In this document: positions 24,526 to 40,795 of the stretch, piece after piece
Layout of the letters: each line of letters opens with the position of its first letter
Position numbering within the stretch: the stretch's first letter is position 1
DNA from: Myroides oncorhynchi
Lineage (GTDB): Bacteria; Bacteroidota; Bacteroidia; Flavobacteriales; Flavobacteriaceae
NCBI RefSeq assembly: GCF_020905415.1
Contig: NZ_JAJJMP010000001.1
Location: 3,111,501 to 3,175,500 of the forward strand
Reading direction: 5' to 3'
DNA length: 64,000 nt
Translations under genes and position numbers: made by a program
Notes under the pieces: model-generated
Seen by the model: only the letters and a program-made list of their open reading frames with translations
Told to the model about the DNA's origin: nothing
The model's database searches: none

Positions 24526-27213
24526 ATGAGTGTATCCATAGCTGAGATAGAGAATAGCCTAGAGAAGGTGTTTGCTAATGTAGATAAAGAAAGCTTTATC
24601 TATGAATTTATATTGAGTTTTGGCGTACCTAATTCGACGATAGAAAGGTTAAAAAAAGGCAAGTTTAACTTAGCGGATAATGCAGGGGAATTATTGTGGA
24701 AGAAGAAGGTGTTCTTTAAAGAAACAACGCAAGAAGGTTCTTTATATGAAGCTATAGATAGTCTGAAAAGAGAGGAACGCATTAAAAAAGGAGAATATCG
24801 CTTCGTGATATTGACTAACTATGTGCAATGGGTGGCTGTAGATATGAAAACAGGAGATACATTAGACTGCTCTTTTGAAGAATTACAGAAGTACTTTGAT
24901 TTCTTTTTGCCATTGGCAGGGATAGAGAAGGCACAGTACTTAGCAGAAAACCCAGCTGATGTAAAAGCAGCTGAGCGAATGGCTAAACTATACGATCAGA
25001 TTAATACAGATAACGACTTTCAGACAGAGGAAGAAATACATAGTTTGAATGTGTTCTTATCGCGTTTGTTGTTTTGCTTCTTTGCTGAGGATACAGGTAT
25101 CTTCACAGATCAGCAGTTTACGCATGCGATAGAGAGTTCTACTAATATAGATGCCTCTGATATTCAGGAGTATTTAACTGATTTATTTACTATTCTTAGT
25201 TTACCAGAATCACATAGGCCTGATAATAGAGTGTATCTACAGCAGTTTCCTTATGTAAATGGAGGATTGTTTAACAAGCCAGTACCAGTGCCTGTTATTT
25301 CTATCCGAGCGCGTAAACTAATTATAGACTGTGGACGTCTGGACTGGAAAGCGATTAACCCAGATATATTTGGGTCGATGATACAGGCGGTAGTGACTAC
25401 AGATAAACGCGGAGGATTAGGGATGCACTATACCAGTGTACCTAATATTATGAAGGTGATTAATCCGTTGTTCTTAGATGAGTTAAGAGAGCAGTGTGTA
25501 AGAGGTAAAGAGAGTAAGAAAGAGCTTAATGCCTTATTAGAGCGCTTACAGCACATCAAGATATTTGACCCTGCCTGTGGTAGTGGTAACTTCTTGATTA
25601 TTGCTTATAGAGAACTTCGCTTATTAGAAATAGATATCCTAAAAGAACTCGCTAAGCTTACAGGAAAAGTAGGTACAGGTACATTTGATTTAGGGAATGA
25701 ATATACCTCTGTGATAAGCTTAAATAACTTCTATGGAATAGAGATAGATGACTTCGCACATGAGATTGCTCGTTTATCACTGTGGCTTGCAGAACATCAA
25801 ATGAATCAATATTTTCATGTTGAATTTGGTTATTCTAAACCTGCACTTCCACTGAAGGATGCGGGTTGTATTGTTCATGCAAATGCCTGTCGTATTGACT
25901 GGGAAGAGGTATGCCCTAAAAGGAAAGGAGATGAGATTTATATCTTAGGAAACCCTCCTTATTTGGGTGCTCGTATGCAAAATGAAGAACAGAAAAAGGA
26001 TATGGAGATTGCTTTTAACAAACAGAGGGGAATTAATAATTTAGATTACATCTCTATTTGGTTTTATAAAGGAGCTAAATATATAGAGTCAAGTAATTCA
26101 CAATTGGCTTTTGTATCAACAAACTCAATTTGTCAAGGAGAACAGGTTTCTTTATTATGGCCATCAGTACTTAATAATATAGAGATAGGATTTGTTCATA
26201 CTTCTTTTAAATGGAGTAATAATGCTAAGGGTAATGCAGGAGTTACAGTTATTATATTGGGATTGCGAAACGTGAGTAAGGATGTAAAGTATATCTTTAA
26301 AAATAACATAAGACATGAAGTATCTAATATCAATGCTTATTTATTAGAGGCATCAAATGTTTTCGTTATACCTAAAACAAAAACATTGTCTAAATTATCT
26401 GAAATGTGTTTTGGTAATATGCCTAATGATGGTGGAGCTTTGCTTTTAACTAGAGAGGAAAAGAACGAAATAAAAATAGACACTAATGAAGCAATAATTA
26501 AGAGGTTTGTAGGTGCAGAAGAATTCATTAAGGGAATTGAGAAATATTGTTTTTGGTTTGATGAGGATAATTATAAAACGTATTTAGATGTTAAGTTAAT
26601 AAATGATCGCTTTACTAAAGTTTTTAATCATAGAGAAAAAAGTTCACGTCAAGCAACTAATAAGTTAAAGGATACTTTTTATGCTTTTGGAGAAATTAGA
26701 CATAGAAATGGAAACTCTATAATTATACCAAGACATTCTTCAGAAAATAGATTTTATATACCTATAGGTTACTTAGATGATAGTAGTATAATAGGGGATT
26801 CAGCCTTAACTATTTATGATGCTAAGCCATATATGTTAAGTATCTTACATTCTAAGATACACATGGTATGGGTAGATACTATAGGAGGGAAGTTAGAAAC
26901 ACGTTATCGTTATTCTGCGAAGCTATGTTACAACACCTTTCCGTTCCCTAAAATAACAAAGGCTAAAGAACAGGAATTAGAAGAGTGTGCATACCGTATC
27001 TTAGAGGTGAGAGAACGTTACCCAGAAAAGACTTTAGCGCAGCTATATGATCCAGAGAAGATGCCTGCGGATTTAAAAGAAGCGCATCAACAGAATGATA
27101 TGGCGGTAGAATCGTGCTATAGAGAGAAACCGTTTACCTCTGATGAAGAACGCTTAGAGTATCTGTTTAAGCTGTATGAGAAGATGATTAAAGACGAAAA
27201 GAATAAGAAATAG
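24526..27213 (+). CDS. MmeI-like N6-adenine DNA methyltransferase, nuclease motif apparently lost
   Basis: 895 residues. Methyltransferase motif I FDPACGSGNFL (347-357) and motif IV GNPPYLG (475-481) mark an N6-adenine enzyme of the MmeI/type IIL group, and the central YTSVPNIMKVINPLFLDEL spacer matches that group. MmeI itself has an N-terminal D-ExK nuclease. The equivalent region here (about 50-130) reads VFFKETTQEG and lacks the E-x-K, so it probably only methylates. The segment after residue about 490 up to 800, the target recognition part, is far more AT-rich than the two ends, which suggests exchange of specificity. It is the first gene of the island, 7 bases before the next. Confidence 0.85.
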   Translation: MSVSIAEIENSLEKVFANVDKESFIYEFILSFGVPNSTIERLKKGKFNLADNAGELLWKKKVFFKETTQEGSLYEAIDSLKREERIKKGEYRFVILTNYVQWVAVDMKTGDTLDCSFEELQKYFDFFLPLAGIEKAQYLAENPADVKAAERMAKLYDQINTDNDFQTEEEIHSLNVFLSRLLFCFFAEDTGIFTDQQFTHAIESSTNIDASDIQEYLTDLFTILSLPESHRPDNRVYLQQFPYVNGGLFNKPVPVPVISIRARKLIIDCGRLDWKAINPDIFGSMIQAVVTTDKRGGLGMHYTSVPNIMKVINPLFLDELREQCVRGKESKKELNALLERLQHIKIFDPACGSGNFLIIAYRELRLLEIDILKELAKLTGKVGTGTFDLGNEYTSVISLNNFYGIEIDDFAHEIARLSLWLAEHQMNQYFHVEFGYSKPALPLKDAGCIVHANACRIDWEEVCPKRKGDEIYILGNPPYLGARMQNEEQKKDMEIAFNKQRGINNLDYISIWFYKGAKYIESSNSQLAFVSTNSICQGEQVSLLWPSVLNNIEIGFVHTSFKWSNNAKGNAGVTVIILGLRNVSKDVKYIFKNNIRHEVSNINAYLLEASNVFVIPKTKTLSKLSEMCFGNMPNDGGALLLTREEKNEIKIDTNEAIIKRFVGAEEFIKGIEKYCFWFDEDNYKTYLDVKLINDRFTKVFNHREKSSRQATNKLKDTFYAFGEIRHRNGNSIIIPRHSSENRFYIPIGYLDDSSIIGDSALTIYDAKPYMLSILHSKIHMVWVDTIGGKLETRYRYSAKLCYNTFPFPKITKAKEQELEECAYRILEVRERYPEKTLAQLYDPEKMPADLKEAHQQNDMAVESCYREKPFTSDEERLEYLFKLYEKMIKDEKNKK

Positions 27214-27220
27214 TATTGAT

Positions 27221-28852
27221 ATGAATGAGGCATTTATAAAGCAACTGTTGTTAGATAACAATGAGAATGAGCTGTTTGAGTTAAAAAAAGCAGAATCAAC
27301 ATTTTCTAAAGATGAATTAGGGAAGTATTTTTCAGCATTGAGTAATGAGGCAAACTTAAATAAGAGAGAGTATGCTTATCTGCTATTTGGTATTAACGAT
27401 GATAAAGTTATTGTAGGAAGCAAGATATCAGATACTCAGTTAGATGAATTCAAATTAGAAGTATTTAAACAGACTTCTCCTCAATGTAGTTTTTCTGCAG
27501 TAGAACGTATTTGTATCGATGGTAAAGATGTTATTTTATTCGAGATACCGAAATGCTCTGCAGGACATCCTATGAGATGGAAGGGACATTGTTATGGTAG
27601 GAATGGTGAAAGTATAGGAGCCTTAGAAGAGTTTGAATATGAACGTATAAAAGGACAAGTAAGAACAGACTGGAGTAGTAAGATAGTTGCGGAAGCTACT
27701 ATGGCGGACCTTGATAAACAAGCTATTTTAATCGCGCGCGAAAATTTTAAAGTTAAAAATTCACGTGTTAGTAATGAAGTAGATAACTGGGATGATATTA
27801 CCTTCTTGAATAAAGCAAAGCTATTAATTAGTGGTCAAATAACTACTACAGCGTTGTTACTATTGGGGAAAAGTGAATCTACGCATTGGTTAACTCCTGC
27901 TATAAGTCAACTTACTTGGATATTAAAAGATGTTGATGGAATAGAGAAAGATTATGAGCATTTTAGTAGTCCTCTGTTGTTAACAGTAAGTGATGTTTTT
28001 AAAAAAATAAGAAACTTAAAATACAGATATATCCGTACTGATTCGTTATTTCCTGAGGAGGTAGAGCAGTATGATCCTTATATTATCCGTGAAGCGCTAA
28101 ATAACTGTATTGCGCATCAAGATTACTTATTGGGAGGGAAGATAGTAGTTACAGAAAGTGAAGATGGTTATTTATTGTTTTCTAATGCAGGAGATTTTTT
28201 ACCAGGTAGTATTGAGAAAGTCATTCAAGCAGATGCACCACAGCTTATTTACCGCAATAAGTTTTTGGTAGATGCGATGGTACAGTTAAATATGATAGAT
28301 ACTATAGGAAGTGGAATTAGAAAGATGTTTCGCATACAGAAGGATAAATACTTTCCTTTGCCTGATTACTCCATTGGCAATTCTTATGTAGAAGTTAAGG
28401 TAATGGGGAAGGTGTTAAATATGGATTATGCTCGAAAGCTGGCCAAAATAAAGAGTTTATCATTAGATAAAATTATACTATTAGATAAGGTAGCTAAAGG
28501 TTTATCATTAACAGAAGCTGAAATACACATATTAAGAGAGGATAAACTTATAGAAGGTCGAAAACCTAATCTTATTATATCTTCTACTGTTGCTAAGCAG
28601 ACTAATCAAAAAGGGGAGTATGTTAAACAAAAAGGCTTCGAAGATGAGACAATTGAGTTGGCTGTAGTAGATTATCTGAGAAAATTTAAACAAGCACAAA
28701 GGACTGAAATAGAGGAAGTGTTGTTTAAACATCTACCAAGTGTACTCACTTTAAAGCAAAAGAAGGATAAAATTAAGAATGTGCTTCAAAAACTAAAAAG
28801 GGATCAAAAAGTATCTTGCGAAAATAGATTGTGGTATTTAAAAAAGGAATAA
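27221..28852 (+). CDS. AlbA_2/Schlafen-type ATP-binding protein
   Basis: 543 residues. Residues 15-140 form an AlbA_2 (Schlafen-like) domain: NELFELKKAEST, EYAYLLFGIND, and HPMRWKGHCYGRNGES. Residues 287-375 form a GHKL-type ATPase (HATPase_c_4) with N-box EALNNCIAHQDY (291-302) and TIGSGIRKMF. The C-terminal 140 residues look like tandem winged helices with a linker. Such proteins are common near restriction genes and may regulate or sense nucleic acid; their role is not established. The start is 7 bases after the methyltransferase stop. The tandem array begins right after its stop codon. Confidence 0.82.
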   Translation: MNEAFIKQLLLDNNENELFELKKAESTFSKDELGKYFSALSNEANLNKREYAYLLFGINDDKVIVGSKISDTQLDEFKLEVFKQTSPQCSFSAVERICIDGKDVILFEIPKCSAGHPMRWKGHCYGRNGESIGALEEFEYERIKGQVRTDWSSKIVAEATMADLDKQAILIARENFKVKNSRVSNEVDNWDDITFLNKAKLLISGQITTTALLLLGKSESTHWLTPAISQLTWILKDVDGIEKDYEHFSSPLLLTVSDVFKKIRNLKYRYIRTDSLFPEEVEQYDPYIIREALNNCIAHQDYLLGGKIVVTESEDGYLLFSNAGDFLPGSIEKVIQADAPQLIYRNKFLVDAMVQLNMIDTIGSGIRKMFRIQKDKYFPLPDYSIGNSYVEVKVMGKVLNMDYARKLAKIKSLSLDKIILLDKVAKGLSLTEAEIHILREDKLIEGRKPNLIISSTVAKQTNQKGEYVKQKGFEDETIELAVVDYLRKFKQAQRTEIEEVLFKHLPSVLTLKQKKDKIKNVLQKLKRDQKVSCENRLWYLKKE

Positions 28853-28856
28853 TGCG

Positions 28857-29200
28857 TAGACGATAATACGTATAGGTTTAGACGATAATACGTATAGGTT
28901 TAGACGATAATACGTATAGGTTTAGACGATAATACGTATAGGTTTAGACGATAATACGTATAGGTTTAGACGATAATACGTATAGGTTTAGACGATAATA
29001 CGTATAGGTTTAGACGATAATACGTATAGGTTTAGACGAAAATGACGTATAGATTTAGACGAAAATGACGTATAGGTTTAGACGATAACGCGTATAGATT
29101 TAGACGATAACACGTATAGATTTAGACGATAACACGTATAGGTTTAGACGAAAATGACGTATAGATTTAGACGATAATACAGATAAGTTTAGACGATTAA
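28857..29200. repeat. 16-copy tandem array of a 22-23 bp unit
   Basis: The motif TTTAGACGA recurs 16 times (the first copy begins GTAGACGA) at intervals of 22 or 23 bases. The main unit is TTTAGACGATAATACGTATA followed by GG; the first nine copies are nearly identical, and later copies vary (AAAATGACGTAT, AACACGTAT, GATTT for GGTTT). The full unit contains the 8-base palindrome ATACGTAT. It is not a multiple of 3, carries no spacers, and fills the whole gap between the AlbA-type and KAP-type genes. Unlike a CRISPR, there is no unique sequence between repeats. It could be an array of protein-binding sites or a length-variable control region. Confidence 0.95.
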
Positions 29201-29217
29201 ATAAGAAATAAAACACG

Positions 29218-30795
29218 ATGACCAACCCTACTACCACTATAAAAATATCCAACGAGTCTATAATAGATGAGTTTAAAGAGCACCTTGACTTAGAGTTAAA
29301 CCAACGCATATTATTTACTGCTCCTTTTGGGGCAGGGAAGTCAACGTTTATTAATGACTTTGAAGATGAGCATAAAGATGGATATCGCTTTATAAGACTC
29401 TATCCGGTGAACTATGCTGTATCAGCTAATGAGGATATATTTGAGCTAATTAAGTTTGATATTCTGTATGAGCTGATGGCACATCATAATGAAGAGATAG
29501 CTTTAGTAAAAGAAGACTTTGACTTTTGGTTACGTATGTCAATGTTTATGCAGAATAAAGCAGATTTAATGCCTTTGTTTTTATTTGTTTTATCACAACA
29601 TGAAAAAATAGGTAAAAGTGCAGCAGTCTTTATTGGTGCTGTAGAAAAAATATTGACACCTCTTAAAAAAGGGTTTAAAGAATATAGTGAGCAAATTAAG
29701 ATAGATGTATTAGCAGATATTACGAAGTTTTTAAACTCTTTTAAAGATAAGAAAGGCAGTCCTTATGAAATGGATGCGACTTCACAGTTTATCTTTGACT
29801 TAGTTGATAGACTTAAAGGAGATGAGTTACCTGATCAAGAGGTGATAGAAGAAGATAAGAAGATAACAAATAAGACAGTATTAGTCATAGATGACTTAGA
29901 TCGTTTAGATCCTGACCATATCTTTAGGTTGTTTAATATCTTTTCTGCTCATACACATTCGATAACAGGAGAGAATAAGTTTGGTTTTGACAAGGTTGTT
30001 TTTGTCTGTGATATAGAGAATATTCGTAAGATCTATGCACATAAATATGGAGAAGGTGTTGACTTCTCTGGGTATATGGATAAGTTCTATTCTGTGAAGC
30101 CTTTTGAGTTTGACCATAAGGAGTATTTAACTGATCAATTGGAAGAGATTATTAAAAATTATAGATTCATAAATACAGATAGTGAATTTGTTAATAGTAA
30201 TGAATTTAAAAGAATTTTAATTGGGTCTTTGAAATTTTGTTTAAAAGAGAAAATATTAAACTTACGTAGTTTAAAACAAATAGGGGTAATGTCTTTTGAT
30301 TTAAGGCAAAGTAAGAATAGTAATTATCAGGGAATGGTATTACCAGGGGTTATTATTTTTACAATACTAAAAGAAATGATGGGTAGTATTTCAGTTTTAG
30401 AACAAGGTTTATTATTAGCGTTAAAAGGGACAGAAAAAGCTTACAGTGTTCTTCCTATGGGGAGATATAGTTATAATTACAAAAATGGTTTAACACCTAA
30501 AGAGTATAATGAGCTGATAAATACTTTTATGGTATATGAGGAAGAATTTTCGATAGATAATAAACAGTTTAATTTTAATACTGAACAAAGGAATTGTTAT
30601 GTTGAAGCTTTAGACGTTAGTGTTTATTATAGCAATAATTCCTATGGTTACTCTCATAAAATTTATATTCATGAAGTTTATGAAGGAGATTGTATAGATA
30701 TAATAGATAAGAGTGACATAAATAAAGTAGAGTTATCAATATCAAATTTAATGGTTAGAGCATTCAGTAATCTGAAGAATAAAGAGGAATTATAG
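29218..30795 (+). CDS. KAP-family P-loop NTPase
   Basis: 525 residues. Walker A APFGAGKST is at 35-43 and Walker B VLVIDDLDRLDPDHIF starts at 221, with the typical KAP insertion between them. LYPVNYAVSANEDIFELIKFD is characteristic of Bacteroidota members annotated as P-loop NTPase fold proteins. There is no obvious membrane helix pair, although residues 115-150 are fairly hydrophobic. KAP NTPases occur in phage-defence loci, where their action is mostly unknown. The ATG lies about 20 bases after the tandem array. The last 200 residues are encoded by notably AT-rich sequence. Confidence 0.82.
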   Translation: MTNPTTTIKISNESIIDEFKEHLDLELNQRILFTAPFGAGKSTFINDFEDEHKDGYRFIRLYPVNYAVSANEDIFELIKFDILYELMAHHNEEIALVKEDFDFWLRMSMFMQNKADLMPLFLFVLSQHEKIGKSAAVFIGAVEKILTPLKKGFKEYSEQIKIDVLADITKFLNSFKDKKGSPYEMDATSQFIFDLVDRLKGDELPDQEVIEEDKKITNKTVLVIDDLDRLDPDHIFRLFNIFSAHTHSITGENKFGFDKVVFVCDIENIRKIYAHKYGEGVDFSGYMDKFYSVKPFEFDHKEYLTDQLEEIIKNYRFINTDSEFVNSNEFKRILIGSLKFCLKEKILNLRSLKQIGVMSFDLRQSKNSNYQGMVLPGVIIFTILKEMMGSISVLEQGLLLALKGTEKAYSVLPMGRYSYNYKNGLTPKEYNELINTFMVYEEEFSIDNKQFNFNTEQRNCYVEALDVSVYYSNNSYGYSHKIYIHEVYEGDCIDIIDKSDINKVELSISNLMVRAFSNLKNKEEL

Positions 30796-30798
30796 GCT

Positions 30799-32730
30799 AT
30801 GGAAAACATTATACAAGTAACATACGGTCAGACAGGCCAATCTACGATGTCGAATACAATGGGGATGCGTGAGATGCAGCAGAAAGCATATCAGGCTCGC
30901 CTAAGTCAGCTATTATTAATTAAGGCACCGCCTGCCTCAGGTAAGTCACGTGCTTTAATGTTTATCGCATTAGATAAACTGATTAATCAAGGGATAAAGA
31001 AAGTAATCGTGGCAGTGCCTGAGCGCTCTATCGGTTCTTCTTTTGCTTATACAGATTTGGTCGCTCATGGTTTCTTTGCTAATTGGGAGCCTAATGATAA
31101 ATATAATCTATGTACCCCTGGTATGGATGACAGCAAGAGTAAGGTAGATGCTTTTGTCAACTTTATGAAAGGCGAAGAGAAAATCTTAATCTGTACTCAT
31201 GCTACGTTGCGTTTTGCCTATGAGCAGTTGCACGATGAAGACTTTGACAACTATCTGTTAGCGATAGATGAGTTTCACCATGTATCAGCCTCAGATGAGA
31301 ATATCTTAGGGAGTTTGTTACGCTCATTGATACGCAATTCTAAGGCACATATTGTGGCTATGACAGGGTCTTACTTTAGAGGAGATTCTCTACCTGTATT
31401 GATGCCTGAAGATGAAGCGAAGTTTACAAAGGTGACATATAACTATTACCAACAGCTGAACGGGTATAAGCATCTGAAGTCTTTAGGGATAGGGTATCAC
31501 TTCTATCAAGGGAGATATTATACGGCTATAGATCAGGTATTAGATACAGATAAGAAAACGATACTACATATTCCGAATGTGAACTCTAATGAGTCCACGA
31601 GAGAGAAATACGAAGAGGTTGACCGCATCTTAGATATTATTGGATCGGTAGTAGGAGTAGATGAGCATACTGCTGTTATCACTTTAAAACGCCACAAAGA
31701 CGGTAAGCTGATCAAGGTAGCAGACTTAGTAAATGACGATGCGAGACAGCGTGAGAAGATAGTGGCTTATCTCCGCAATATAAAAGAGGCAGAGGATATG
31801 GACTTGATTATTGCGTTGGGTATGGCTAAGGAGGGGTTTGACTGGCCTTATTGTGAGCATGCTTTAACAGTAGGGTACAGAGGATCGCTGACAGAGATTA
31901 TACAGATTATAGGGCGTGCTACTCGAGATAGTGAGGACAAGACTCACGCACAGTTTACTAATCTATTAGCTCAGCCAGACGCACAGAATGACGATGTAGT
32001 AGTGGCGGTAAATAATATGCTAAAGGCTATAACAGCTTCACTATTAATGGAACAGGTATTGGCTCCTAACTTTGATTTTAAGCCGAAGCGTGATGAACGC
32101 GACTTGGCTGAGCCAGGAACGATTAAGATTAAAGGATTTAAGGGAATCACTACTGCTAAGGTAAAGTCTATCGTAGAGGAGGATATTAATGATTTAAAAG
32201 CAGCTATTCTACAAGATAGAGATGTCTCTAAGGCTATAACAGGTAGTATAGATCCTGATGTTATCAATAAGGTATTAATCCCTAAAGTGATTAAGACACG
32301 CTATCCAGAGCTGGATATAGAGGAGTTAGAAGCGGTACGTCAGTATGTGGTTTCTGATTCTGTAGTAAAATCAGGAGAGATACAGGAAGTAGGGGGTAAA
32401 AAGTTTATCGTACTGGCGAAGCAATTTATCAATATAGATGAGATAAGTATTGACTTGATAGACAGTATTAATCCGTTTCAGAAAGCGTACGAGATATTGT
32501 CTAAATCGGTCACTATCCCTGTGCTTAAAATGATACAAGAGGTATTATTAGCGTCAAAAATAAAAATATCAGATGAAGAGGCTTTATTAACATGGCCTAA
32601 GATAGTAGCCTTCGTTGATGAGCATAAGCGTGAGCCTAATGTAGATTCTGATAATGCGTTAGAAGTGCGATTAGGAGAAGTATTGGTGTTTATTAGAGAT
32701 AAGAAACGTAAGGCGATGCAGAATGGATAA
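30799..32730 (+). CDS. DExH-box superfamily 2 helicase
   Basis: 643 residues. Motif I APPASGKS (43-50), motif II DEFH (157-160), motif III MTGSYF, and motif VI QIIGRATRD (369-377) mark a superfamily 2 helicase. The C-terminal 250 residues are helical and end in a module FVDEHKREPN ... RLGEVLVFIRDKKRK, which recurs in the next gene's product. It starts 4 bases after the NTPase stop and overlaps the GIY-YIG gene by 8 bases, so the two should be made together. It likely translocates on DNA to feed the nuclease, which is inference. Confidence 0.88.
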   Translation: MENIIQVTYGQTGQSTMSNTMGMREMQQKAYQARLSQLLLIKAPPASGKSRALMFIALDKLINQGIKKVIVAVPERSIGSSFAYTDLVAHGFFANWEPNDKYNLCTPGMDDSKSKVDAFVNFMKGEEKILICTHATLRFAYEQLHDEDFDNYLLAIDEFHHVSASDENILGSLLRSLIRNSKAHIVAMTGSYFRGDSLPVLMPEDEAKFTKVTYNYYQQLNGYKHLKSLGIGYHFYQGRYYTAIDQVLDTDKKTILHIPNVNSNESTREKYEEVDRILDIIGSVVGVDEHTAVITLKRHKDGKLIKVADLVNDDARQREKIVAYLRNIKEAEDMDLIIALGMAKEGFDWPYCEHALTVGYRGSLTEIIQIIGRATRDSEDKTHAQFTNLLAQPDAQNDDVVVAVNNMLKAITASLLMEQVLAPNFDFKPKRDERDLAEPGTIKIKGFKGITTAKVKSIVEEDINDLKAAILQDRDVSKAITGSIDPDVINKVLIPKVIKTRYPELDIEELEAVRQYVVSDSVVKSGEIQEVGGKKFIVLAKQFINIDEISIDLIDSINPFQKAYEILSKSVTIPVLKMIQEVLLASKIKISDEEALLTWPKIVAFVDEHKREPNVDSDNALEVRLGEVLVFIRDKKRKAMQNG

Positions 32731-33979
32731 GAAAGTATATACGTCGTATGATGATATTTTTAACGATGATGTCTTTAATCTATTAGATGTAAAGGCAAGC
32801 GTTAAAGCGTTAAGTGAGGACGAGCGTTTGATTAATTCGTTTCAAGAGATAAATGATTTCGTTCGTGAACATAACCGAGAACCTAACAAGGTGAAGGGAT
32901 TTAGTGAGCGTATGTTATATTCGAGATTAGAAGGATTTAGAAACAATATAGCACATCAGAAGAAGTTATCTGCTTTTGATGAGTTTAACTTGTTGCCAGA
33001 GCCACTGGATAATTTAGAAGGAGACTACAGTATCCAAGTAGAAAAACCTAAAGTAGTAGAGGTAAATTCCTTTGAAGATATATTAGCTACTGATGTGTTT
33101 AATTTACTTGGTGCAGATACAGAAGATCAATTAGGATTGTTTGAATTAAGTGATGCTTTACGTGAGCATAGAGATAGAGATAAGACTGACTTTGTGGCTA
33201 AGCGTCAGCCTTGTAAAGACTTTGAGCAGTATGAGGTTATGTTTAAGGCTGTACACGAAGAATTGAGAGAAGGGCGTAGAAAGTTAGTCGAGTTTACAGC
33301 AGGGAGTCAACAAAAGGGTGCTTTCTATGTACACAAGGGAGTGTTGTTTCTATTAGAGAGTTATGAACAGAGTCGGGAAGATTCATATAAAGAAGATGGT
33401 ACACGAGTGAGACGTGATGGGCGTACGCGTTGTATTTTTGAGAATGGTACAGAGTCTAAATTGCTTTGGCGTTCTGTAGAGAAGATGCTGTATGATGATG
33501 GACAAGCAGTAACGCATTTAGCAGAGAAAGCAAACTATGAGTTGCATCTGAATGCTAATTTAGTGAAGGAGGATGATGTTAGTACAGGACATCTCTATGT
33601 GTTGCAATCTAAGAGTATAGATCCTAAAATTAAGAATATACCTAATTTATTTAAAATAGGGTTCTCTACTACAGATGTAGAGACACGTATTAAGAATGCA
33701 AAGAACGAACCGACGTACTTAATGGCTGAGGTGCATTTGGTATTGAAAGTAGCTTGTTATAACATGAATCCGCATAAGTTTGAGCAGTTATTACACGCTT
33801 TCTTTGGTGAGATAGGTTTGGTTCTAGAAGTAGCTGATAAAGATGGTGTAGTGCATAAACCAAGAGAGTGGTTTAGCGTGCCATTAGATGTAGTAGAGCA
33901 AGTAATCGACTTGATTATTAGTGAAGAAATTGTGAATTATAAGTATGATAGTAAGAATCAAAAGATAATTAAAGGGTGA
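32723..33979 (+). CDS. GIY-YIG nuclease family protein (T5orf172/MUG113-like)
   Basis: 418 residues. The C-terminal domain (290-400) is a GIY-YIG nuclease: HLYVLQS (290-296), LFKIGFS (309-315), Arg322 in ETRIKNA, and metal-binding Glu354 in HKFEQLLHAFF. Residues 8-23 and 116-132 are an internal repeat (DDIFNDDVFNLL and EDILATDVFNLL). Residues 45-80 (FVREHNREPN ... RLEGFRNN) match the helicase C-terminus. Residues 165-265 form a conserved middle domain seen in relatives (DGRTRCIFENGTESKLLWRS). It overlaps the helicase gene by 8 bases and probably cuts DNA as its partner. Confidence 0.85.
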   Translation: MDKKVYTSYDDIFNDDVFNLLDVKASVKALSEDERLINSFQEINDFVREHNREPNKVKGFSERMLYSRLEGFRNNIAHQKKLSAFDEFNLLPEPLDNLEGDYSIQVEKPKVVEVNSFEDILATDVFNLLGADTEDQLGLFELSDALREHRDRDKTDFVAKRQPCKDFEQYEVMFKAVHEELREGRRKLVEFTAGSQQKGAFYVHKGVLFLLESYEQSREDSYKEDGTRVRRDGRTRCIFENGTESKLLWRSVEKMLYDDGQAVTHLAEKANYELHLNANLVKEDDVSTGHLYVLQSKSIDPKIKNIPNLFKIGFSTTDVETRIKNAKNEPTYLMAEVHLVLKVACYNMNPHKFEQLLHAFFGEIGLVLEVADKDGVVHKPREWFSVPLDVVEQVIDLIISEEIVNYKYDSKNQKIIKG

Positions 33980-35169
33980 TGGGGAGTAAGTATTATTTAG
34001 TGTTTTCAAGAGTTTTATTAACACTTGCATTTGACTTAGTTATAGTTTTTTTGTGTTTGTATTTTTTTCTTCCTGATAATTTTCTTCCTAATGATTTTGA
34101 TAAATTAGCTGTTATAATTAGTGGGATAACTGCACCATTAATTGCTATTGCGGCAGCTATTCTTACCTTTTTAGCATTTAAGATGCAAGTGGATGTAAAT
34201 AAAAAAATTCAAAGGCAAATTAAATTACAAGAAATTGCTAATAATGAGATTCAGAAACAGAATCAACAACAAAATCAACAATTTAGATTATTACAATTTG
34301 AAAGTCAGTTTTATGAATTACTCCGTTTACATAAAGAAAATGTAAATGAAATGGTAATTCAGGGGTATGTTTTTGAGGGAATTAACAAGATTGAAAGAGA
34401 GATTGGTGGACGAAAGATATTTGTGAGTAATGTAACAGAGTTCTTGAGTTTGGTTAAGATTATTAGTGGTCATATTGAAGAAAAGAAGAGCAATTCAACA
34501 TTTGTGTTAAATGATAGATATGTGATTGCTATTGCGTATTATATCTTCTTTTTTGGATTGGATTCTTTTAAAAGACATATAGAAAATAATTGGAATCCAA
34601 TAACTAAAAAAACTATTAAAGAGGATAAAAAGAAATGCCTCACACAAATGGTAAATTGTATCAGTGCTTTTCAGGACAGACATAAGAACGCAGGAACTGG
34701 TAGATATAGTTGCTCTAAGATATCCGAAGTGAAAATGTATTTTAAATATAAACCTTATTCAGGTCATTTATCTCGATATGGTCATTATTATAGAAACTTA
34801 ATCTTAATAGTAAAACATATAGTAGGTAATAAAATAGGATTGACTTATGGAGAAGAGAGAAATTATTTACGTATTCTGAGAGCACAATTGACACCACATG
34901 AACAATTTCTACTTTTTTTGAATTGGTATAGTGGTATAGGAAGTCAATGGGAAGAAGATAGTAAGGATGGTAATAAGTTTTTTACTGAGTATCGTATGAT
35001 ACATAATATCAATACAGATGTTATAGAAGATTCTTCTTTTAATTGGGAGGGAATTATTGGAAGTAAATTTGAGAATAGATTAGATTTTAAGTATTTAAAT
35101 AATAGGGATAAAGAATTATTTGAGGTTATAGAAGGTTTTATATCAACTCAAGAGAAAAAAACAGAGTAA
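33979..35169 (+). CDS. PutAbiC-like membrane protein (putative phage abortive infection)
   Basis: 396 residues from the ATG at 33979, which shares one base with the previous stop (TGATG); a GTG one codon earlier is less likely. Two N-terminal membrane helices (about 8-30 and 42-66) are followed by a Gln-rich coiled coil (70-100) and a cytoplasmic domain with FESQFYELLRLHKENV, RYGHYYRNLILIVKHI and ILRAQLTPHEQFLLFLNWYSG. These match the putative phage abortive infection family (PutAbiC). The tight junction ties it to the island operon. Membrane-bound effectors of this kind are thought to kill or arrest infected cells. Confidence 0.78.
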   Translation: MGSKYYLVFSRVLLTLAFDLVIVFLCLYFFLPDNFLPNDFDKLAVIISGITAPLIAIAAAILTFLAFKMQVDVNKKIQRQIKLQEIANNEIQKQNQQQNQQFRLLQFESQFYELLRLHKENVNEMVIQGYVFEGINKIEREIGGRKIFVSNVTEFLSLVKIISGHIEEKKSNSTFVLNDRYVIAIAYYIFFFGLDSFKRHIENNWNPITKKTIKEDKKKCLTQMVNCISAFQDRHKNAGTGRYSCSKISEVKMYFKYKPYSGHLSRYGHYYRNLILIVKHIVGNKIGLTYGEERNYLRILRAQLTPHEQFLLFLNWYSGIGSQWEEDSKDGNKFFTEYRMIHNINTDVIEDSSFNWEGIIGSKFENRLDFKYLNNRDKELFEVIEGFISTQEKKTE

Positions 35170-36356
35170 TGCTAGATAAATTAAAAATAGATTTGGTGTC
35201 TCGATTTTATCCATTATCTATAGATGAGGTTAAAACTAATATAGATAGATTGAATTTTGATGAGTATCATCTTATGATGAATGAGCATGTTGAATGGAAC
35301 ATCGAATTAGTAAACCTTCTTAAAGATAAGATTGATTGGGCAGCATTGTTTAAGTTGAAATCCTTAAAGGTGGATATTTCTTTTATAGATCGATTTATTG
35401 ACTATATTGATTTTAAAACTGTAGGGATATGTAACGTTGTGTTTTCTAATCAAATCCATAAGGACTTTTTGGATAGATATTCTTGGGGAAGTGATAATGC
35501 TCTATTATTTTTAAATATGAATGAGGAAATAATTCCTTATGTGTTAGCAGAGTATGAGGAGGTTATTAATTGGAAAGTGTTTTCAAGAAGTATTGCGTTA
35601 CCTTACATCAGTATAGTACAGTATGAAAACTATATTGATTGGAATGAATTATCTAAGAATAATAAAATAAATGATGTAGACTTTATTTTACTTCATTATA
35701 GAACACGTTTAGATGAGAGAAGTATATCAGGCAATATTGCTTACGCTGACTTAATTCGCAAGAACCCACAGGCTTTAACTTGGAAATGGAATAGTGTACT
35801 TTTAAATCATGGTTTTTCATTAGAGAAGGACGCAGAGTTCTTGTATAAGAATTATAAAGAAAATTTGAAGTTGGCTAATAATGAAAGTATAAAAAGGAAG
35901 TTTATTAATATCTGTTTATTAAGAGGAGATAAGTTAACATCTATCATAAATTCAAAATCGATTAGCTATATTTCATGGAGTGTTTTTAACAATAGCAACG
36001 GAGTAGCACTTCCTGAGAATTTGCTTGAGCAATACAAGGATAAAATAGATTTTACTAATAATAGTTTTTTGATGAAGAGTAGTACTACTATTAGTCTTGA
36101 TTTTATTAGAAAAAACATCTCATTGTTTGATATATCTAACAGAAATTTTGCTCGTTTAAATTTAGATCTCAGGTTTGTAGAAGAGTATGAAGATGTGATA
36201 TATTGGGTTTCTCTTTCTTTCAATGAGTTTTTACAATGGAATGAGGATTTTATTATTAAGTATAGTAATAGGTTAGATTTCTTAAAATTATCATGGAATA
36301 AAAGCGTTTATTTAGGATTGGGATTAGATAAAAAGGGAGTTGGAGTTTTAAAATAA
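35169..36356 (+). CDS. Repeat protein of unknown function within the defence operon
   Basis: 395 residues, soluble, very AT-rich gene. The ATG overlaps the previous stop (TAATG). The protein consists of about eight to ten loose repeats with a core such as IDWAALFKL, VINWKVFSRS, YIDWNELSKN, YISWSVFNNS, VIYWVSLSFN and RLDFLKLSWN, spaced 25-40 residues apart. This pattern suggests a solenoid scaffold or recognition protein. I see no catalytic motif or signal peptide. I do not recognise a named family. It sits between two membrane-protein genes, so it could be a sensor or adaptor for them. Confidence 0.7.
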   Translation: MLDKLKIDLVSRFYPLSIDEVKTNIDRLNFDEYHLMMNEHVEWNIELVNLLKDKIDWAALFKLKSLKVDISFIDRFIDYIDFKTVGICNVVFSNQIHKDFLDRYSWGSDNALLFLNMNEEIIPYVLAEYEEVINWKVFSRSIALPYISIVQYENYIDWNELSKNNKINDVDFILLHYRTRLDERSISGNIAYADLIRKNPQALTWKWNSVLLNHGFSLEKDAEFLYKNYKENLKLANNESIKRKFINICLLRGDKLTSIINSKSISYISWSVFNNSNGVALPENLLEQYKDKIDFTNNSFLMKSSTTISLDFIRKNISLFDISNRNFARLNLDLRFVEEYEDVIYWVSLSFNEFLQWNEDFIIKYSNRLDFLKLSWNKSVYLGLGLDKKGVGVLK

Positions 36357-36361
36357 AGGAA

Positions 36362-36910
36362 ATGAAGGAAAGACTGCATAGTTATTGGAAAATGAATCAA
36401 TGGAGGTTATGTATTGGGGGAGCCCTTATAGTTGTAATCGTTATAATTGTGTATAGTATATTACCTGAGAGTAAACTGCGTGATGAGAAAAATGTTCTTA
36501 CTCTTGTGACGGCAACTATGGCTGGAATAATAGCTATATACTTAGGGTTAGTTAAGCAAAATTTAGATGATGATAAGTTGTTTCAGGAATTGTTTCTTCA
36601 TTTTAATAGTCGATATGATAATGATTTAAATGATCTTTTTAATGAGTTACGTGAGGAAAAAGATGATCAGCGTGAGTTGACAAAAGAAGAAAGACTTTTA
36701 GTAATAGATTATTTTAATCTTTGTAGTGAGGAATATCTTTGGCATATCCGAGGAAGATTATTACCCGAGGTTTGGAATGCATGGGAACAAGGCATTATAG
36801 CTAATTTAAAAATACCTAAAGTTAAAGAGTTATTTGATAAAGAATGTTTGAATGAAAATAGTAGAAAATCATATTATGGTTTTATTGAATATATCGAAAA
36901 GAAAATATAA
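36362..36910 (+). CDS. Two-helix membrane protein of unknown function
   Basis: 182 residues. Two membrane helices (about 16-34 and 46-64) are followed by a charged cytoplasmic domain with LFLHFNSRYDNDLNDLF and VIDYFNLCSEEYLW. The shape resembles DUF4760-like small membrane proteins found in defence loci, with low certainty. It begins 5 bases after the repeat-protein gene and ends 2 bases before the nuclease gene. Two neighbouring membrane proteins (this and the PutAbiC-like one) suggest a membrane-acting effector step. Confidence 0.65.
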   Translation: MKERLHSYWKMNQWRLCIGGALIVVIVIIVYSILPESKLRDEKNVLTLVTATMAGIIAIYLGLVKQNLDDDKLFQELFLHFNSRYDNDLNDLFNELREEKDDQRELTKEERLLVIDYFNLCSEEYLWHIRGRLLPEVWNAWEQGIIANLKIPKVKELFDKECLNENSRKSYYGFIEYIEKKI

Positions 36911-36912
36911 TT

Positions 36913-38025
36913 ATGGATTTTAATGAAAAGGTAAATAGGTTTTGTAATAAGTATAAGCTAAATGAATACAGTAGTTTTAATTTGTTGAAGGTGATGCATC
37001 ATCTTACAGATGAAAGACGTCTGCATTCAAGGTTTATAACTTTCTTATTAAATCCTAACGGAAGTCATGAACAAGGGACAAAGTTTTTAGAATTGTTTTT
37101 AAATAACACATCTATTAAGTCTTTTGAATTACAAGAAGTGTCCGTCTATCCACATGAAGTAGAAAAGAAAGAAGATGAGAATATCGATATATTCATTCAG
37201 AATAGTAAAGGACAAGCTATTATTATAGAAAATAAGATATTTGCTGGAGATAGTAATAAAAAAGAAGGAGAAACAATTAAAGCTCAGCTTCTAAACTATT
37301 ATGATAAAAAGAAAATTGAGTTTAGTGATATTACTTTAGTCTATCTGACTTTAAATGGAAAAGAACCTTCGTTTTATGAACAGTTTAAAGATATACAGCC
37401 TGAGTTAATTAGACTTGATTATATTGGTTTTATTACTAAATGGTTAGAACAGTGTTTAGAACAAACTATATCAAATAGTGATTTGCGAAGTAGTATACTA
37501 CAGTATTTAAGTATAGTAAAAGAAATAACAAATGACTTTGAATTAGCTGTTGCGTTAAAAGAGGAAACAGCTAAAGATTTAGAATCTGGATATAAGTATT
37601 GGATTATTGATAAAGATATTAATAATCACATAGTACAAGATCAGTTTAAGCATGTAAAATGGCATACTGTACATGAGTTTATGAATACATTGTATATTAC
37701 TATCACGAGTAAGTTTAATACAGAGGTTTCAAGGCTAAATGAAGATCATATTACAGCTTGTACTCATAGAAATAGCGTAAAGGCTAAAGTTGTAATAGCT
37801 TTTTTATATGAAGACACTACATACTATGTGTGCAATGATAATAAGGGATTTACTATTGGTTGTGTTGGAGATAATTGCCAAAAAGAATATAAAGTTCTCT
37901 TTGAAGGTAAATATAACTTTAATGATTTCAGTATTAGGGAAACATTTGATCTTATAAATGAAGATATAACTAAGATGTTAATTAGTAGAATCGTAGACGA
38001 GATTAACAAGTACATAGTAAAATGA
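36913..38025 (+). CDS. PD-(D/E)XK nuclease family protein (PDDEXK_4)
   Basis: 370 residues. The N-terminus has the PDDEXK_4 signature LHSRFITFLLNPNGSHEQG, followed by the nuclease core IDIFIQNSKGQAIIIENKI, with Asp92, Glu106 and Lys108 as the D ... E-x-K triad, and AQLLNYYD. The C-terminal 170 residues are not recognised. Proteins of this family are found in many defence islands and are assumed to cut DNA or nucleotides. It lies 2 bases after the small membrane protein gene and just before mcrB, all on one strand. Confidence 0.83.
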   Translation: MDFNEKVNRFCNKYKLNEYSSFNLLKVMHHLTDERRLHSRFITFLLNPNGSHEQGTKFLELFLNNTSIKSFELQEVSVYPHEVEKKEDENIDIFIQNSKGQAIIIENKIFAGDSNKKEGETIKAQLLNYYDKKKIEFSDITLVYLTLNGKEPSFYEQFKDIQPELIRLDYIGFITKWLEQCLEQTISNSDLRSSILQYLSIVKEITNDFELAVALKEETAKDLESGYKYWIIDKDINNHIVQDQFKHVKWHTVHEFMNTLYITITSKFNTEVSRLNEDHITACTHRNSVKAKVVIAFLYEDTTYYVCNDNKGFTIGCVGDNCQKEYKVLFEGKYNFNDFSIRETFDLINEDITKMLISRIVDEINKYIVK

Positions 38026-38031
38026 TCATTG

Positions 38032-40791
38032 ATGGAAGAAGGAAATAAGAAAATTTGGGAAGAAGCATTGCAATATGCGTTTACTGAATTAGATAAGAAA
38101 GGTTGGATGGCTAAGAATAATGGGAGGTATTATTTTGTAGTAAATGAAGGAAAAGAATATCCTAATAAGAAAGTTTTACACTATGTAGAGAAGTATTTCC
38201 ACAAGAAAAAAGTAAAGCTAATAGTGCCAAGTTCAGCTAATAATGGAGAGCGCTTAAATGTTTTTTTAGCTAATAACGGAGCAGAAGTTATTAGTAAGAA
38301 GGAGTCATTTATTAGTAGTTGTATAAGAGAGCAATCAGATGTTATAAAAAAACTAATAGAAGATTATAAAAAGCAAATAAAGTCAGGTGCTCTAAAGTAT
38401 GAAGAGTATAAATGGTTGTTATTTACGTCTCAGAAAGGAATGCCTTCATTACAAAAAAGTACTATTGTAGATGAGTTGCTTAGTATAAAGTTTGTGAACC
38501 TATTATATTATAGTGCTATTTCGACAATGAAGCATTTAAATAAAGATAGGAAAGATCAATATTCTGATTTATTATTAGGGCTATATGATGAGAATATAGA
38601 CATTGAAGAAAGAATAAAGCAGTTTAGTGGGGGGATTGAAAGTCTTTATCGAGAGGTAGAAACAAAACTTCAGCACCATCATGATGAAAGAACTATATCT
38701 ACTTTGCTAAGTTTTAAATATCCTGAGAAGTATTTATTGTTTAAGAACTCGTTTTACCAAAAGCTATGTAATCTTCTTGAAATGGAATCCCTTGATAAAG
38801 GAGAAAAGTATTTAGATTACCTTGAAATAGCAGAAGAAATTAGAGATAGTTTTATTAAAACAGATACTGAATTGTTATCATTGGTAAAACAATATTTACC
38901 AGAAGGGAGTTATGATGATCCTAATTATAATCTTTTGACACAGGATTTCCTTTATACTATGTTAGAAAAGAGTAATGATTATTATGATCAGTTTAAAAAG
39001 GTTAAAAAACTCTTTAATGATAAATTAAAAAGCTTAGAGAATTCTTCTATTACTTATAAAGAACGCAATGGGAAGGATTTTCAATGGGTACAAGATAAAT
39101 ATGGTATTATAGGAAATGAGTATATCCACTATGAATTGTATTGTGATAAGTCTTCTATCTATATAGACTTGCATTTGGAAGATGAAGCACAATCTAAAGA
39201 AATAACCTTGCTTTTAAAGGAACTATATATTCATTTATTGAATAAAAAGTATGATTCTGAGTTGGTGTCTTGGATAGATTGGGTCAAAGAGACTAATAGT
39301 AAAGACTACATTCAATCTATAAGATTCTATAAGGCATTTTCTTTAGATGAAGAGGATATTCTTGAAGAACAAAGTATTAGTGAAATGATTCAAAGTTTTG
39401 TGGACTTAGATGATATTATTGGCGATGATATACGCGAGTTTCTGATCAAGAATAATCAGGTAAAAGAAGAAATAGCAATTAATTATGTAGCAGAAAAAAA
39501 CATGAACCACCCACTAAACCAAATACTATACGGACCTCCTGGAACTGGGAAGACGTATACACTACAGAATAAGTTTTTCGATACTTTTACTAAAAGAGAA
39601 ATTACAATTACTAAGGAAGAATATGTAAAAAGTATTATACAGGAATTAAGTTGGTGGCAAGTAATTACCCTAGTAGTGTTAGAGATTAAAAAGGGAAAAG
39701 TAAATGATATTTATGAACATGAATATATAAAAGTAAAAGAACAATTCAGTAAGTCTAAAACTGTAGTGCCAACAATTTGGGGGCAATTACAAGCACATAC
39801 ATTATTAAAATGTCCAAATGTAAATGTTGAGAAGAGACAGGAACCTTTATATTTTTGGAAGGACGAAAATTCAAATTGGTCTATTGAAAAAGAAGATTTA
39901 GAGTCATCATATAGTGAGATTATAGATATTCAGGAAAGAGTAAATAATTACACTCCAGAAAGAAGTGTGACAATTAAGAATTATGAATTTGTAACTTTTC
40001 ATCAATCTTTTACTTATGAAGATTTTATTGAGGGGATTAAACCTGATTTAGAGGATAATACAGGCGGTGAAATTAAGTATCGAATAAAAGATGGAGTGTT
40101 TAAGACTATTTGTAAAAAAGCACAAAAAGACCCTGAGAATAGATACGCTTTGTTCATAGACGAAATCAACCGTGGGAATGTATCTGCCATCTTCGGGGAG
40201 TTGATTACCTTGATAGAAGAGAGTAAACGGTTAGGGAATGAGGAGGCATTAGAAGTTACCTTGCCATACTCAAAAGAGAAGTTTGGTGTGCCAAATAATC
40301 TGCATATTATTGGGACGATGAATACGGCTGATAGAAGTGTAGAGGCTCTGGATACTGCGCTTAGACGTCGATTTACCTTCGAGGAGATGATGCCTAATTA
40401 TGATGTAATTAAGACAGAGAACAGCTTTGGAATTGATTTGAGTAAATTATTAAGAACTATTAATGACCGTATAGAGGTATTGTTAGATAGAGATCACTTG
40501 ATAGGACATAGTTACTTCTTACATGTAGATTCTCTTGAAACACTACAATCGAGATTTAGGGATAATATTATTCCGCTGTTGCAAGAGTATTTCTATGGGG
40601 ATTATGGAAAGATGGGATTGTTACTTGGTGAAGGGTTTGTAACTAAGAAAGAGGGTGATAAGGTTGTCTTTGCTTCATTTGACTATGATAGCGATATGTA
40701 TAGTGAGAAGAGTATTTATAATTTAAAAAGTACATGGGAAGAAGGTGAGTTTAGGGAAGCTATAAGTAAGTTGTTGGGAATAAAAGTTTAA
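38032..40791 (+). CDS. mcrB: McrB-type AAA+ GTPase subunit of type IV restriction
   Basis: 919 residues from the ATG at 38032; a TTG one codon earlier is ignored. The first 480 residues are a long uncharacterised N-terminal part, which in McrB proteins recognises modified DNA. The AAA+ domain has Walker A GPPGTGKT (501-508), Walker B LFIDEINRGN (around 710), the McrB/Dnd-type signature MNTADRS (763-769), and the sensor arginines in ALRRRF. E. coli McrB hydrolyses GTP and recruits McrC to cut methylated DNA. It is placed directly before mcrC with 4 bases between. Confidence 0.9.
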   Translation: MEEGNKKIWEEALQYAFTELDKKGWMAKNNGRYYFVVNEGKEYPNKKVLHYVEKYFHKKKVKLIVPSSANNGERLNVFLANNGAEVISKKESFISSCIREQSDVIKKLIEDYKKQIKSGALKYEEYKWLLFTSQKGMPSLQKSTIVDELLSIKFVNLLYYSAISTMKHLNKDRKDQYSDLLLGLYDENIDIEERIKQFSGGIESLYREVETKLQHHHDERTISTLLSFKYPEKYLLFKNSFYQKLCNLLEMESLDKGEKYLDYLEIAEEIRDSFIKTDTELLSLVKQYLPEGSYDDPNYNLLTQDFLYTMLEKSNDYYDQFKKVKKLFNDKLKSLENSSITYKERNGKDFQWVQDKYGIIGNEYIHYELYCDKSSIYIDLHLEDEAQSKEITLLLKELYIHLLNKKYDSELVSWIDWVKETNSKDYIQSIRFYKAFSLDEEDILEEQSISEMIQSFVDLDDIIGDDIREFLIKNNQVKEEIAINYVAEKNMNHPLNQILYGPPGTGKTYTLQNKFFDTFTKREITITKEEYVKSIIQELSWWQVITLVVLEIKKGKVNDIYEHEYIKVKEQFSKSKTVVPTIWGQLQAHTLLKCPNVNVEKRQEPLYFWKDENSNWSIEKEDLESSYSEIIDIQERVNNYTPERSVTIKNYEFVTFHQSFTYEDFIEGIKPDLEDNTGGEIKYRIKDGVFKTICKKAQKDPENRYALFIDEINRGNVSAIFGELITLIEESKRLGNEEALEVTLPYSKEKFGVPNNLHIIGTMNTADRSVEALDTALRRRFTFEEMMPNYDVIKTENSFGIDLSKLLRTINDRIEVLLDRDHLIGHSYFLHVDSLETLQSRFRDNIIPLLQEYFYGDYGKMGLLLGEGFVTKKEGDKVVFASFDYDSDMYSEKSIYNLKSTWEEGEFREAISKLLGIKV

Positions 40792-40795
40792 GGAA

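What the first reader, a model, noticed from the sequence alone, without database searches (positions are those of the whole stretch)
28857..29200. 16-copy 22-bp tandem array inside a defence-type gene cluster
The whole gap between the AlbA-type and KAP NTPase genes is a tandem repeat with no unique spacers and an 8-base palindrome (ATACGTAT) in the consensus unit. The nine left copies are nearly identical and the right ones are diverged, a pattern that fits ongoing expansion at one end. A 22-bp period puts the sites on one face of the helix, which suits cooperative protein binding. It may be an operator array, a nucleoprotein platform for one of the flanking ATPases, or a length-based switch of KAP, helicase and nuclease expression.
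Basis: partly seen in the sequence, partly recalled or inferred. Interest (0 to 1): 0.75.

Follow-up and report, generated by a model that had tools for sequence, protein, structure and literature searches.

The report
Phased DNA repeats behind Schlafen-like gene
A bacterial phage-defence cluster carries a block of 22-base DNA repeats that seems to belong to the Schlafen-like gene just before it, because many relatives of that gene carry their own block of repeats spaced by turns of the DNA helix, which suggests that the protein docks on an array beside its own gene.

Summary
The array is real: sixteen unit starts, 15 complete 22/23-bp units, eight identical on the left, filling the gap between an AlbA_2 (Schlafen-like) gene and a KAP gene, and unique in this genome. 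It goes with the AlbA_2 gene, not with KAP: none of 36 KAP loci has it (three show no upstream DNA). Relatives of the AlbA_2/HATPase/winged-helix protein usually have short repeats just 3' of their stop codon: 25 of 32 non-redundant relatives have a 7-mer three or more times there, against 23 of 174 control gene ends. Units differ between relatives, but spacings fall near 10-12, 20-23 and 31-33 bp (best period 10.6). A second sample met the spacing classes fixed on the first in 7 of 11. In two related pairs the last codons plus array diverge between near-identical flanks; in a third, divergence starts at the same place. The genes sit in type I, III, IIG and BREX operons. Best reading: a cassette of Schlafen-like protein plus cognate, helically phased DNA-binding array. 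Binding, regulation and effector docking are inferred. The protein architecture is described in BREX; I found no description of the arrays, but the main bacterial-Schlafen preprint could not be read.

The parts
28857..29197 (+). Tandem array: 15 complete units of 22/23 bp and a truncated sixteenth; core TAGACGA in all 16, mostly as TTTAGACGA
28857..29032 (+). Eight identical 22-bp units (recently homogenised or expanded part)
27221..28852 (+). Schlafen-like protein gene (543 aa): AlbA_2 at residues 15-132, HATPase_c_4 at 318-393; proposed binder of the array
   Evidence: Pfam; relatives
28631..28849 (+). C-terminal winged-helix region (residues about 471-543), proposed reader of the repeats
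   Evidence: models, structure comparison, divergence islands
24526..27213 (+). MmeI-type IIG restriction-modification enzyme, upstream neighbour
   Evidence: Pfam and PADLOC
29218..30795 (+). KAP NTPase gene, downstream neighbour; its relatives lack the array
30799..32730 (+). DEAD/ResIII helicase gene, downstream
32723..33979 (+). T5orf172 (GIY-YIG type) gene, downstream

Best explanation
The array is the cis-acting DNA-binding array of the Schlafen-like protein encoded immediately upstream. Protein gene and array form one cassette that is carried inside restriction-modification and BREX operons. The C-terminal winged helix reads a short core (here TTTAGACGA) repeated every one or two helical turns, so that copies of the protein line up on one face of the DNA. 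Occupancy most likely limits expression of the protein itself and read-through into the next defence gene, and may hold a potentially suicidal Schlafen-type effector docked and inactive. Shown by comparison: array real and unique in the genome; linked to the AlbA_2 gene; helically phased spacing in the family; fast joint divergence of C-terminus and array in a few pairs; location inside RM and BREX operons. Inferred: binding itself, the winged helix as reader, repression, docking and release.
For: Repeats 3' of the stop in 25 of 32 non-redundant relatives against 23 of 174 control gene ends and 2 of 28 5' flanks. Distances between repeats have a 10.6-bp period (R 0.63, n 74; 0 of 20,000 uniform draws); controls R 0.09. 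Shortest distance per locus in 10-12 or 20-23 in 25 of 32 against 19 of 151 controls, and in 7 of 11 of a second sample with the classes fixed beforehand. The locus-specific motif is confined to the gene end (95 copies there, 1.4 expected from the rest of the same 22 loci, motifs chosen by eye). Closest relatives (53-55% identity) have TTTAGAC-type units like the window. Pairs L260/L261 and L248/L253: C-terminal codons and array diverge between near-identical flanks; L237/L240: divergence starts at the same place and the motif changes. C-terminus models as a winged helix. Setting in RM and BREX operons. Near-identical loci L257 and L259 differ by one 10-bp unit.
Against: No binding data. The all-pairs test of 28 relatives gave equal weak partial correlations of array with C-terminus and with N-terminus (0.129 and 0.132, both p 0.02). 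L227 and L231 share array words at 33% C-terminal identity, and L248/L253 keep the same motif TGCAGAA despite their divergent C-termini. In 3 of 20 loci the next gene is a methyltransferase, so the array does not generally precede the nuclease. 7 of 32 relatives fail each of the two criteria; L299 passes the spacing test of the second sample with no array evident by eye. The third catalytic acid of Schlafen RNases (position recalled) is N in 18 and D in 14 of 33. The array folds better as RNA than shuffles (z -7.5), as palindromic repeats would anyway.
Confidence: 0.6

Rival explanations
1. RNA element: the repeats act in the operon transcript, bound by the AlbA_2 domain as a translational control or as an RNA antitoxin in the manner of type III toxin-antitoxin systems.
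For: Repeats lie inside what look like operons, between co-directional genes, and copies within an array are mostly co-oriented. RNA fold of the array is stronger than shuffles (z -7.5). AlbA_2/Schlafen domains are known for RNA cleavage (recalled; PMC12839542 passages).
Against: Spacing follows the B-DNA helical repeat, which single-stranded RNA binding does not ask for. No Rfam family at the array: the two sub-threshold matches lie in the AlbA_2 gene. Some arrays contain inverted copies.
Confidence: 0.17
2. Neutral minisatellite: slippage in a tolerant gap, without function.
For: Eight identical left units and a one-unit difference between L257 and L259 show that copies come and go.
Against: Repeats with different units recur at the same place behind most relatives of one protein but rarely behind other genes, and with a helical period.
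Confidence: 0.1
3. Operator array for another regulator, or for KAP, that controls the downstream KAP, helicase and nuclease genes; its place behind the AlbA_2 gene is secondary.
For: The array lies directly before KAP, and 22 bp is about two helical turns.
Against: KAP relatives lack it; relatives of the AlbA_2 gene have arrays before many kinds of genes.
Confidence: 0.08
4. Iteron-like replication origin of an integrated element.
For: 22-bp direct repeats are of iteron size (recalled).
Against: No replication initiator among the ten proteins scanned around the array; relatives mostly have 10-12-bp units; plasmid DNA search gave only three records at E 0.03 or worse, phages none.
Confidence: 0.02

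Closest known systems
[quoted passage not shown] abstract, outline and passages seen)
   Same: Same order of domains (AlbA_2, HATPase, C-terminal winged helix) and the same setting inside BREX (L277, L278) and, here, restriction operons.
   Different: The paper's held main text has no 'direct repeat', 'tandem repeat', 'operator', 'intergenic' or 'binding site'; the cognate 3' array is what is added here. Its supplements were not seen.
Controller (C) proteins and C-boxes of type II restriction systems (recalled)
   Same: A protein of a restriction operon acting on DNA repeats in the operon (proposed here).
   Different: C proteins are small single-domain HTH proteins with sites before their own gene; here a 543-aa three-domain protein with an array behind its gene.
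Type III toxin-antitoxin systems such as ToxIN (recalled)
   Same: Tandem repeats beside a putative RNase gene, with locus-specific units.
   Different: Repeats 3' of the gene, units of 10-12 or 22 bp, spacing in phase with the DNA helix.
PrrC and RloC, suicidal tRNases linked to type I restriction loci (recalled)
   Same: A possible suicidal RNase kept latent inside a restriction operon.
   Different: Unrelated protein fold, and no DNA array is part of those systems as I recall them.

Membership tests
Schlafen (AlbA_2) - HATPase - wHTH family | AlbA_2 domain | tested here: met
   PF04326, E 9e-16, residues 15-132
Schlafen (AlbA_2) - HATPase - wHTH family | HATPase / minimal histidine-kinase-type domain | tested here: met
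   PF13749, E 4.6e-9, residues 318-393; E291, N295, H299, G363, G365 invariant in 33 sequences (the GHKL reading of these residues is recalled)
Schlafen (AlbA_2) - HATPase - wHTH family | C-terminal winged helix | tested here: met
Schlafen (AlbA_2) - HATPase - wHTH family | RNase activity | not testable with these tools
   E15 in 31, E20 in 33 of 33; third acidic position N in 18, D in 14 (catalytic positions recalled)
Type II restriction controller (C protein / C-box) | small single-domain HTH protein | tested here: not met
   543 aa with AlbA_2 and HATPase domains
Type II restriction controller (C protein / C-box) | sites before the controller's own gene | tested here: not met
   array lies 3' of the gene; 5' flanks of relatives repetitive in 2 of 28
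Type III toxin-antitoxin (ToxIN) | repeats 5' of a small RNase gene | tested here: not met
   repeats 3' of a 543-aa gene
CRISPR array | unique spacers between repeats | tested here: not met
   head-to-tail units without spacers
Plasmid iteron origin | adjacent replication initiator gene | tested here: not met
   none among the ten proteins around the array that were scanned

The most novel reading that the evidence does not exclude
A two-part defence cassette of a new kind: a Schlafen-type effector docked on its own helically phased DNA array inside a restriction or BREX operon, where displacement from the array (for example by phage DNA-mimic proteins or by breakdown of the host chromosome) frees the effector, with winged helix and array changing together so that each cassette stays private.
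Probability: 0.25. Interest if true: 0.88.

Novelty: new variant of a known kind. Interest (0 to 1): 0.7.

Why it matters
Schlafen-type genes are described as widespread backup effectors in BREX (PMC12839542), and how such an effector is kept quiet until infection is open. A cognate, helically phased DNA array beside the gene gives a concrete, testable answer: the controlling site is known, its core and spacing can be altered, and pairs such as L237/L240 and L260/L261 offer natural exchanges for mapping specificity. It would also explain a class of odd short tandem repeats inside defence operons.

Tried and rejected
KAP as the partner: 36 relatives fetched, none with the TTTAGACG array and none with a TRF array scoring 60 or more in the 600 bp before the match; three of them (L068, L073, L074) begin at or in the gene and show no upstream DNA. 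The unit elsewhere: a 17-mer scan of 299 family genomes found one site each in six other genomes; 25 of 398 genus genomes, this genome included, match a loose two-copy pattern, and the matches listed elsewhere have other units (lists are cut per genome). Plasmid and phage DNA searches gave no meaningful match. IMG/VR search with the single protein found no relative; with the alignment four, of which two were close enough to use. The remote AlbA_2 relatives L266 and L267 show no evident array. PDB by sequence: none. Full-length model poor, mean pLDDT 48, so only the C-terminus was searched; cullin winged helices dominate the list and no specific family stands out. Promoter and terminator scan: no excess over shuffles. 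TRF scores against dinucleotide shuffles were a poor control, because shuffles of repeat-rich DNA stay repetitive: 23 of 34 gene ends, 1 of 30 5' flanks and 22% of shuffles reach score 45. All-pairs test of C-terminus against array: not decisive. Polarity of the arrays relative to the gene across loci: not established, because I wrote each locus's motif as I read it on the sense strand; those counts show only that copies within an array are mostly co-oriented. A recalled idea that RloF of Campylobacter is this protein was wrong: a passage of PMC11411939 calls it a DUF262 (GmrSD) protein. PMC7641849 and PMC12153781 were seen in passages only and mention COG2865 without repeats in what I saw. 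Literature searches without a description of the arrays.

Full report
What is there. Between window 28857 and 29197 lies a tandem array of 15 complete units (twelve of 22 bp, three of 23 bp) and a truncated sixteenth. The eight left units, 28857-29032, are identical; the right ones vary. The array occupies nearly all of the 365 bp between the stop codon of an AlbA_2/HATPase_c_4 gene (27221-28852) and the start of a KAP NTPase gene (29218-30795). It is unique in this 4.16-Mb genome, and scans of 299 genomes of the family and 398 of the genus showed no second array of this unit among the matches listed (the lists are cut per genome).

Which neighbour owns it. I fetched 36 loci with relatives of the KAP protein; none has the array, though three of them show no upstream DNA. 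Two keep the order MmeI-type enzyme, KAP, helicase, GIY-YIG gene but lack the AlbA_2 gene: in L044 the MmeI and KAP genes are 5 bp apart, in L043 another gene fills the place; neither has repeats there. I then collected relatives of the AlbA_2 protein: 5 of 397 family genomes at E 1e-60 and 29 of 395 phylum genomes at E 1e-35, this genome included in both, four plasmids and two usable IMG/VR contigs. Reading the DNA behind their stop codons showed short repeats in most, with different units: AAGATTAATTAG in L229, TTAAGAGAAGAA in L239, TTAGTCGCGTTT in L243, TGCAGAA-type in L248 and L251, TAAGAAAG in the plasmid L260. The closest relatives (53-55% identity: L227, L231, L232) have TTTAGAC-type units, like the window.

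Numbers. With near-duplicates removed (32 of 40 kept), 25 of 32 relatives have a 7-mer with at least two G or C three or more times within -30 to +220 of the stop, and 14 of 32 four or more times. Their 5' flanks reach three in 2 of 28. Of 175 control gene ends with a gap of 100 bp or more, 24 reach three and 3 reach four; one of these is the window's own AlbA_2 gene, leaving 23 and 2 of 174. In 22 loci the locus-specific motif has 95 copies (84 in the orientation I wrote, 11 inverted) within -60 to +400 of the stop, against 1.4 expected from the rest of the same loci. Those motifs were chosen by eye from the same sequences, so one search is the fairer test; and the orientation count shows only that copies within an array are mostly co-oriented.

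Helical phasing. Distances between repeated 7-mers in the 32 gene ends fall at 10-12 (28 locus-distances), 20-23 (16) and 31-33 (10), with none at 16, 17, 19, 27-30, 34 or 35; best period 10.6 bp, R 0.63, n 74, and 0 of 20,000 uniform draws as high. Control gene ends give R 0.09, n 108. Since distances within one array are not independent, I also took the shortest distance per locus: 25 of 32 lie in 10-12 or 20-23, against 19 of 151 control gene ends, Fisher p 5e-13. Of the other seven, four have no repeated 7-mer (L235, L240, L244, L264) and three a shorter distance (L233, L237, L256). The classes were set after seeing the first histogram, so I applied them unchanged to a second sample: 7 of 11 usable loci met them, p 0.0003 against the same controls. 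Of the four that failed, L288 and L292 have 10- or 11-bp distances beside a shorter one of 9, L297 has 14, L298 has 33. One that passed, L299, shows no array by eye. The relatives are not independent of each other: the 29 full-length ones among the 32 fall into 12 groups at 60% identity, and 9 of the 12 contain at least one locus meeting the criterion as its shortest distance among loci with data, in L226, L228, L243, L246, L247, L250 and L265 as single-member groups. A 10.5-bp rhythm is what sites on one face of B-form DNA would give; this favours DNA over RNA as the bound form.

Protein side. The protein has AlbA_2 at residues 15-132 and HATPase_c_4 at 318-393, with residues I read as the GHKL motifs invariant in 33 sequences. 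The C-terminal 89 residues model as a winged helix (mean pLDDT 77.5), and structure comparison lists winged helices of many kinds. The full-length model is poor. In L260/L261 the DNA is 83-100% identical in 60-bp windows up to -280 of the stop, 63-78% from -220 to +20, and 87-100% beyond. L248/L253 has a similar shape. In L237/L240 the proteins are 93-100% identical over residues 1-455, 89% over 456-500 and 50% over 501-543, and the motif changes from an AAGAGA type to a TTTTACGA type. This suggests that C-terminus and array change together. Against this, an all-pairs test of 28 relatives gave equal weak partial correlations for C-terminus and N-terminus, L227 and L231 share array words at 33% C-terminal identity, and L248/L253 keep the same motif.

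Setting. I fetched wider stretches for 20 relatives and used four loci already held. For 20 of these 24 the next gene downstream, or the third in L275, was scanned: HsdR in 4, ResIII/DEAD helicase in 3, PglZ in 2, N6/N4 methyltransferase in 3, AAA_21-type ATPase in 2, YhcG nuclease in 2, a weak SIR2_2 in 1, none in 3. Of ten upstream genes scanned: HsdS in 4, ResIII in 2, N6/N4 methyltransferase in 2, MmeI in 1, an Eco57I-type enzyme in 1. L277 and L278 are BREX loci with PglZ and BrxL behind the array; in L278 the gene before is PglX. As a methyltransferase follows the array in 3 of 20, a model in which the array delays only the nuclease does not hold in general.

Mechanism. I commit to this: the protein binds its own array through the C-terminal winged helix, with copies aligned on one helical face, and the array limits its own expression and read-through, possibly holding the effector docked. 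Linkage and phasing are shown by comparison; binding, regulation and docking are inferred. An RNA element is kept as the main rival at 0.17, since the array lies in a probable transcript and folds better as RNA than shuffles (z -7.5). Seven loci have an inverted copy at the last codons or stop, which no model here explains.

Known and new. Rakesh and Krishnan 2026 (PMC12839542; [quoted passage not shown] The terms 'direct repeat', 'tandem repeat', 'operator', 'intergenic' and 'binding site' have no occurrence in the main text held; supplements were not seen. They cite Taboada et al. 2025 on bacterial Schlafens in phage defence, a preprint I could not read. My ten literature searches showed no description of the arrays; that is a statement about those searches of this library only. 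PADLOC gave one weak hit for the window protein (E 0.0003, an Argonaute-associated model) and none for two relatives at 1e-10. I therefore call it a new variant of a known kind.

Noticed in passing
window 24526-33979; L043, L044, L268: An MmeI-type IIG enzyme, a DEAD/ResIII helicase and a T5orf172 GIY-YIG gene recur together, with a KAP gene in the window, L043 and L044 and with the AlbA_2 gene plus array instead in L268 (its third downstream ORF was not scanned). This may be a defence system without a name.
   Followed up: partly
genus genomes, control columns: The control pattern (the query read backwards, GCAGATTT twice at 10-20 bp) has up to 45 forward and 30 reverse matches in one genome and many in other large genomes of the genus: an abundant repeat family.
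   Followed up: no
L228, L231, L232, L235, L236, L237, L240 at the AlbA_2 stop codon: An inverted copy of the unit overlaps or lies near the last codons or stop, facing the array behind it.
   Followed up: no
window 33976-42061: Downstream defence genes: putAbiC-domain protein, two proteins without Pfam match, a PDDEXK_4 nuclease (PADLOC candidate PDC-S26), an AAA_5 McrB-like gene and an McrC-like gene below the curated cut-off.
   Followed up: no
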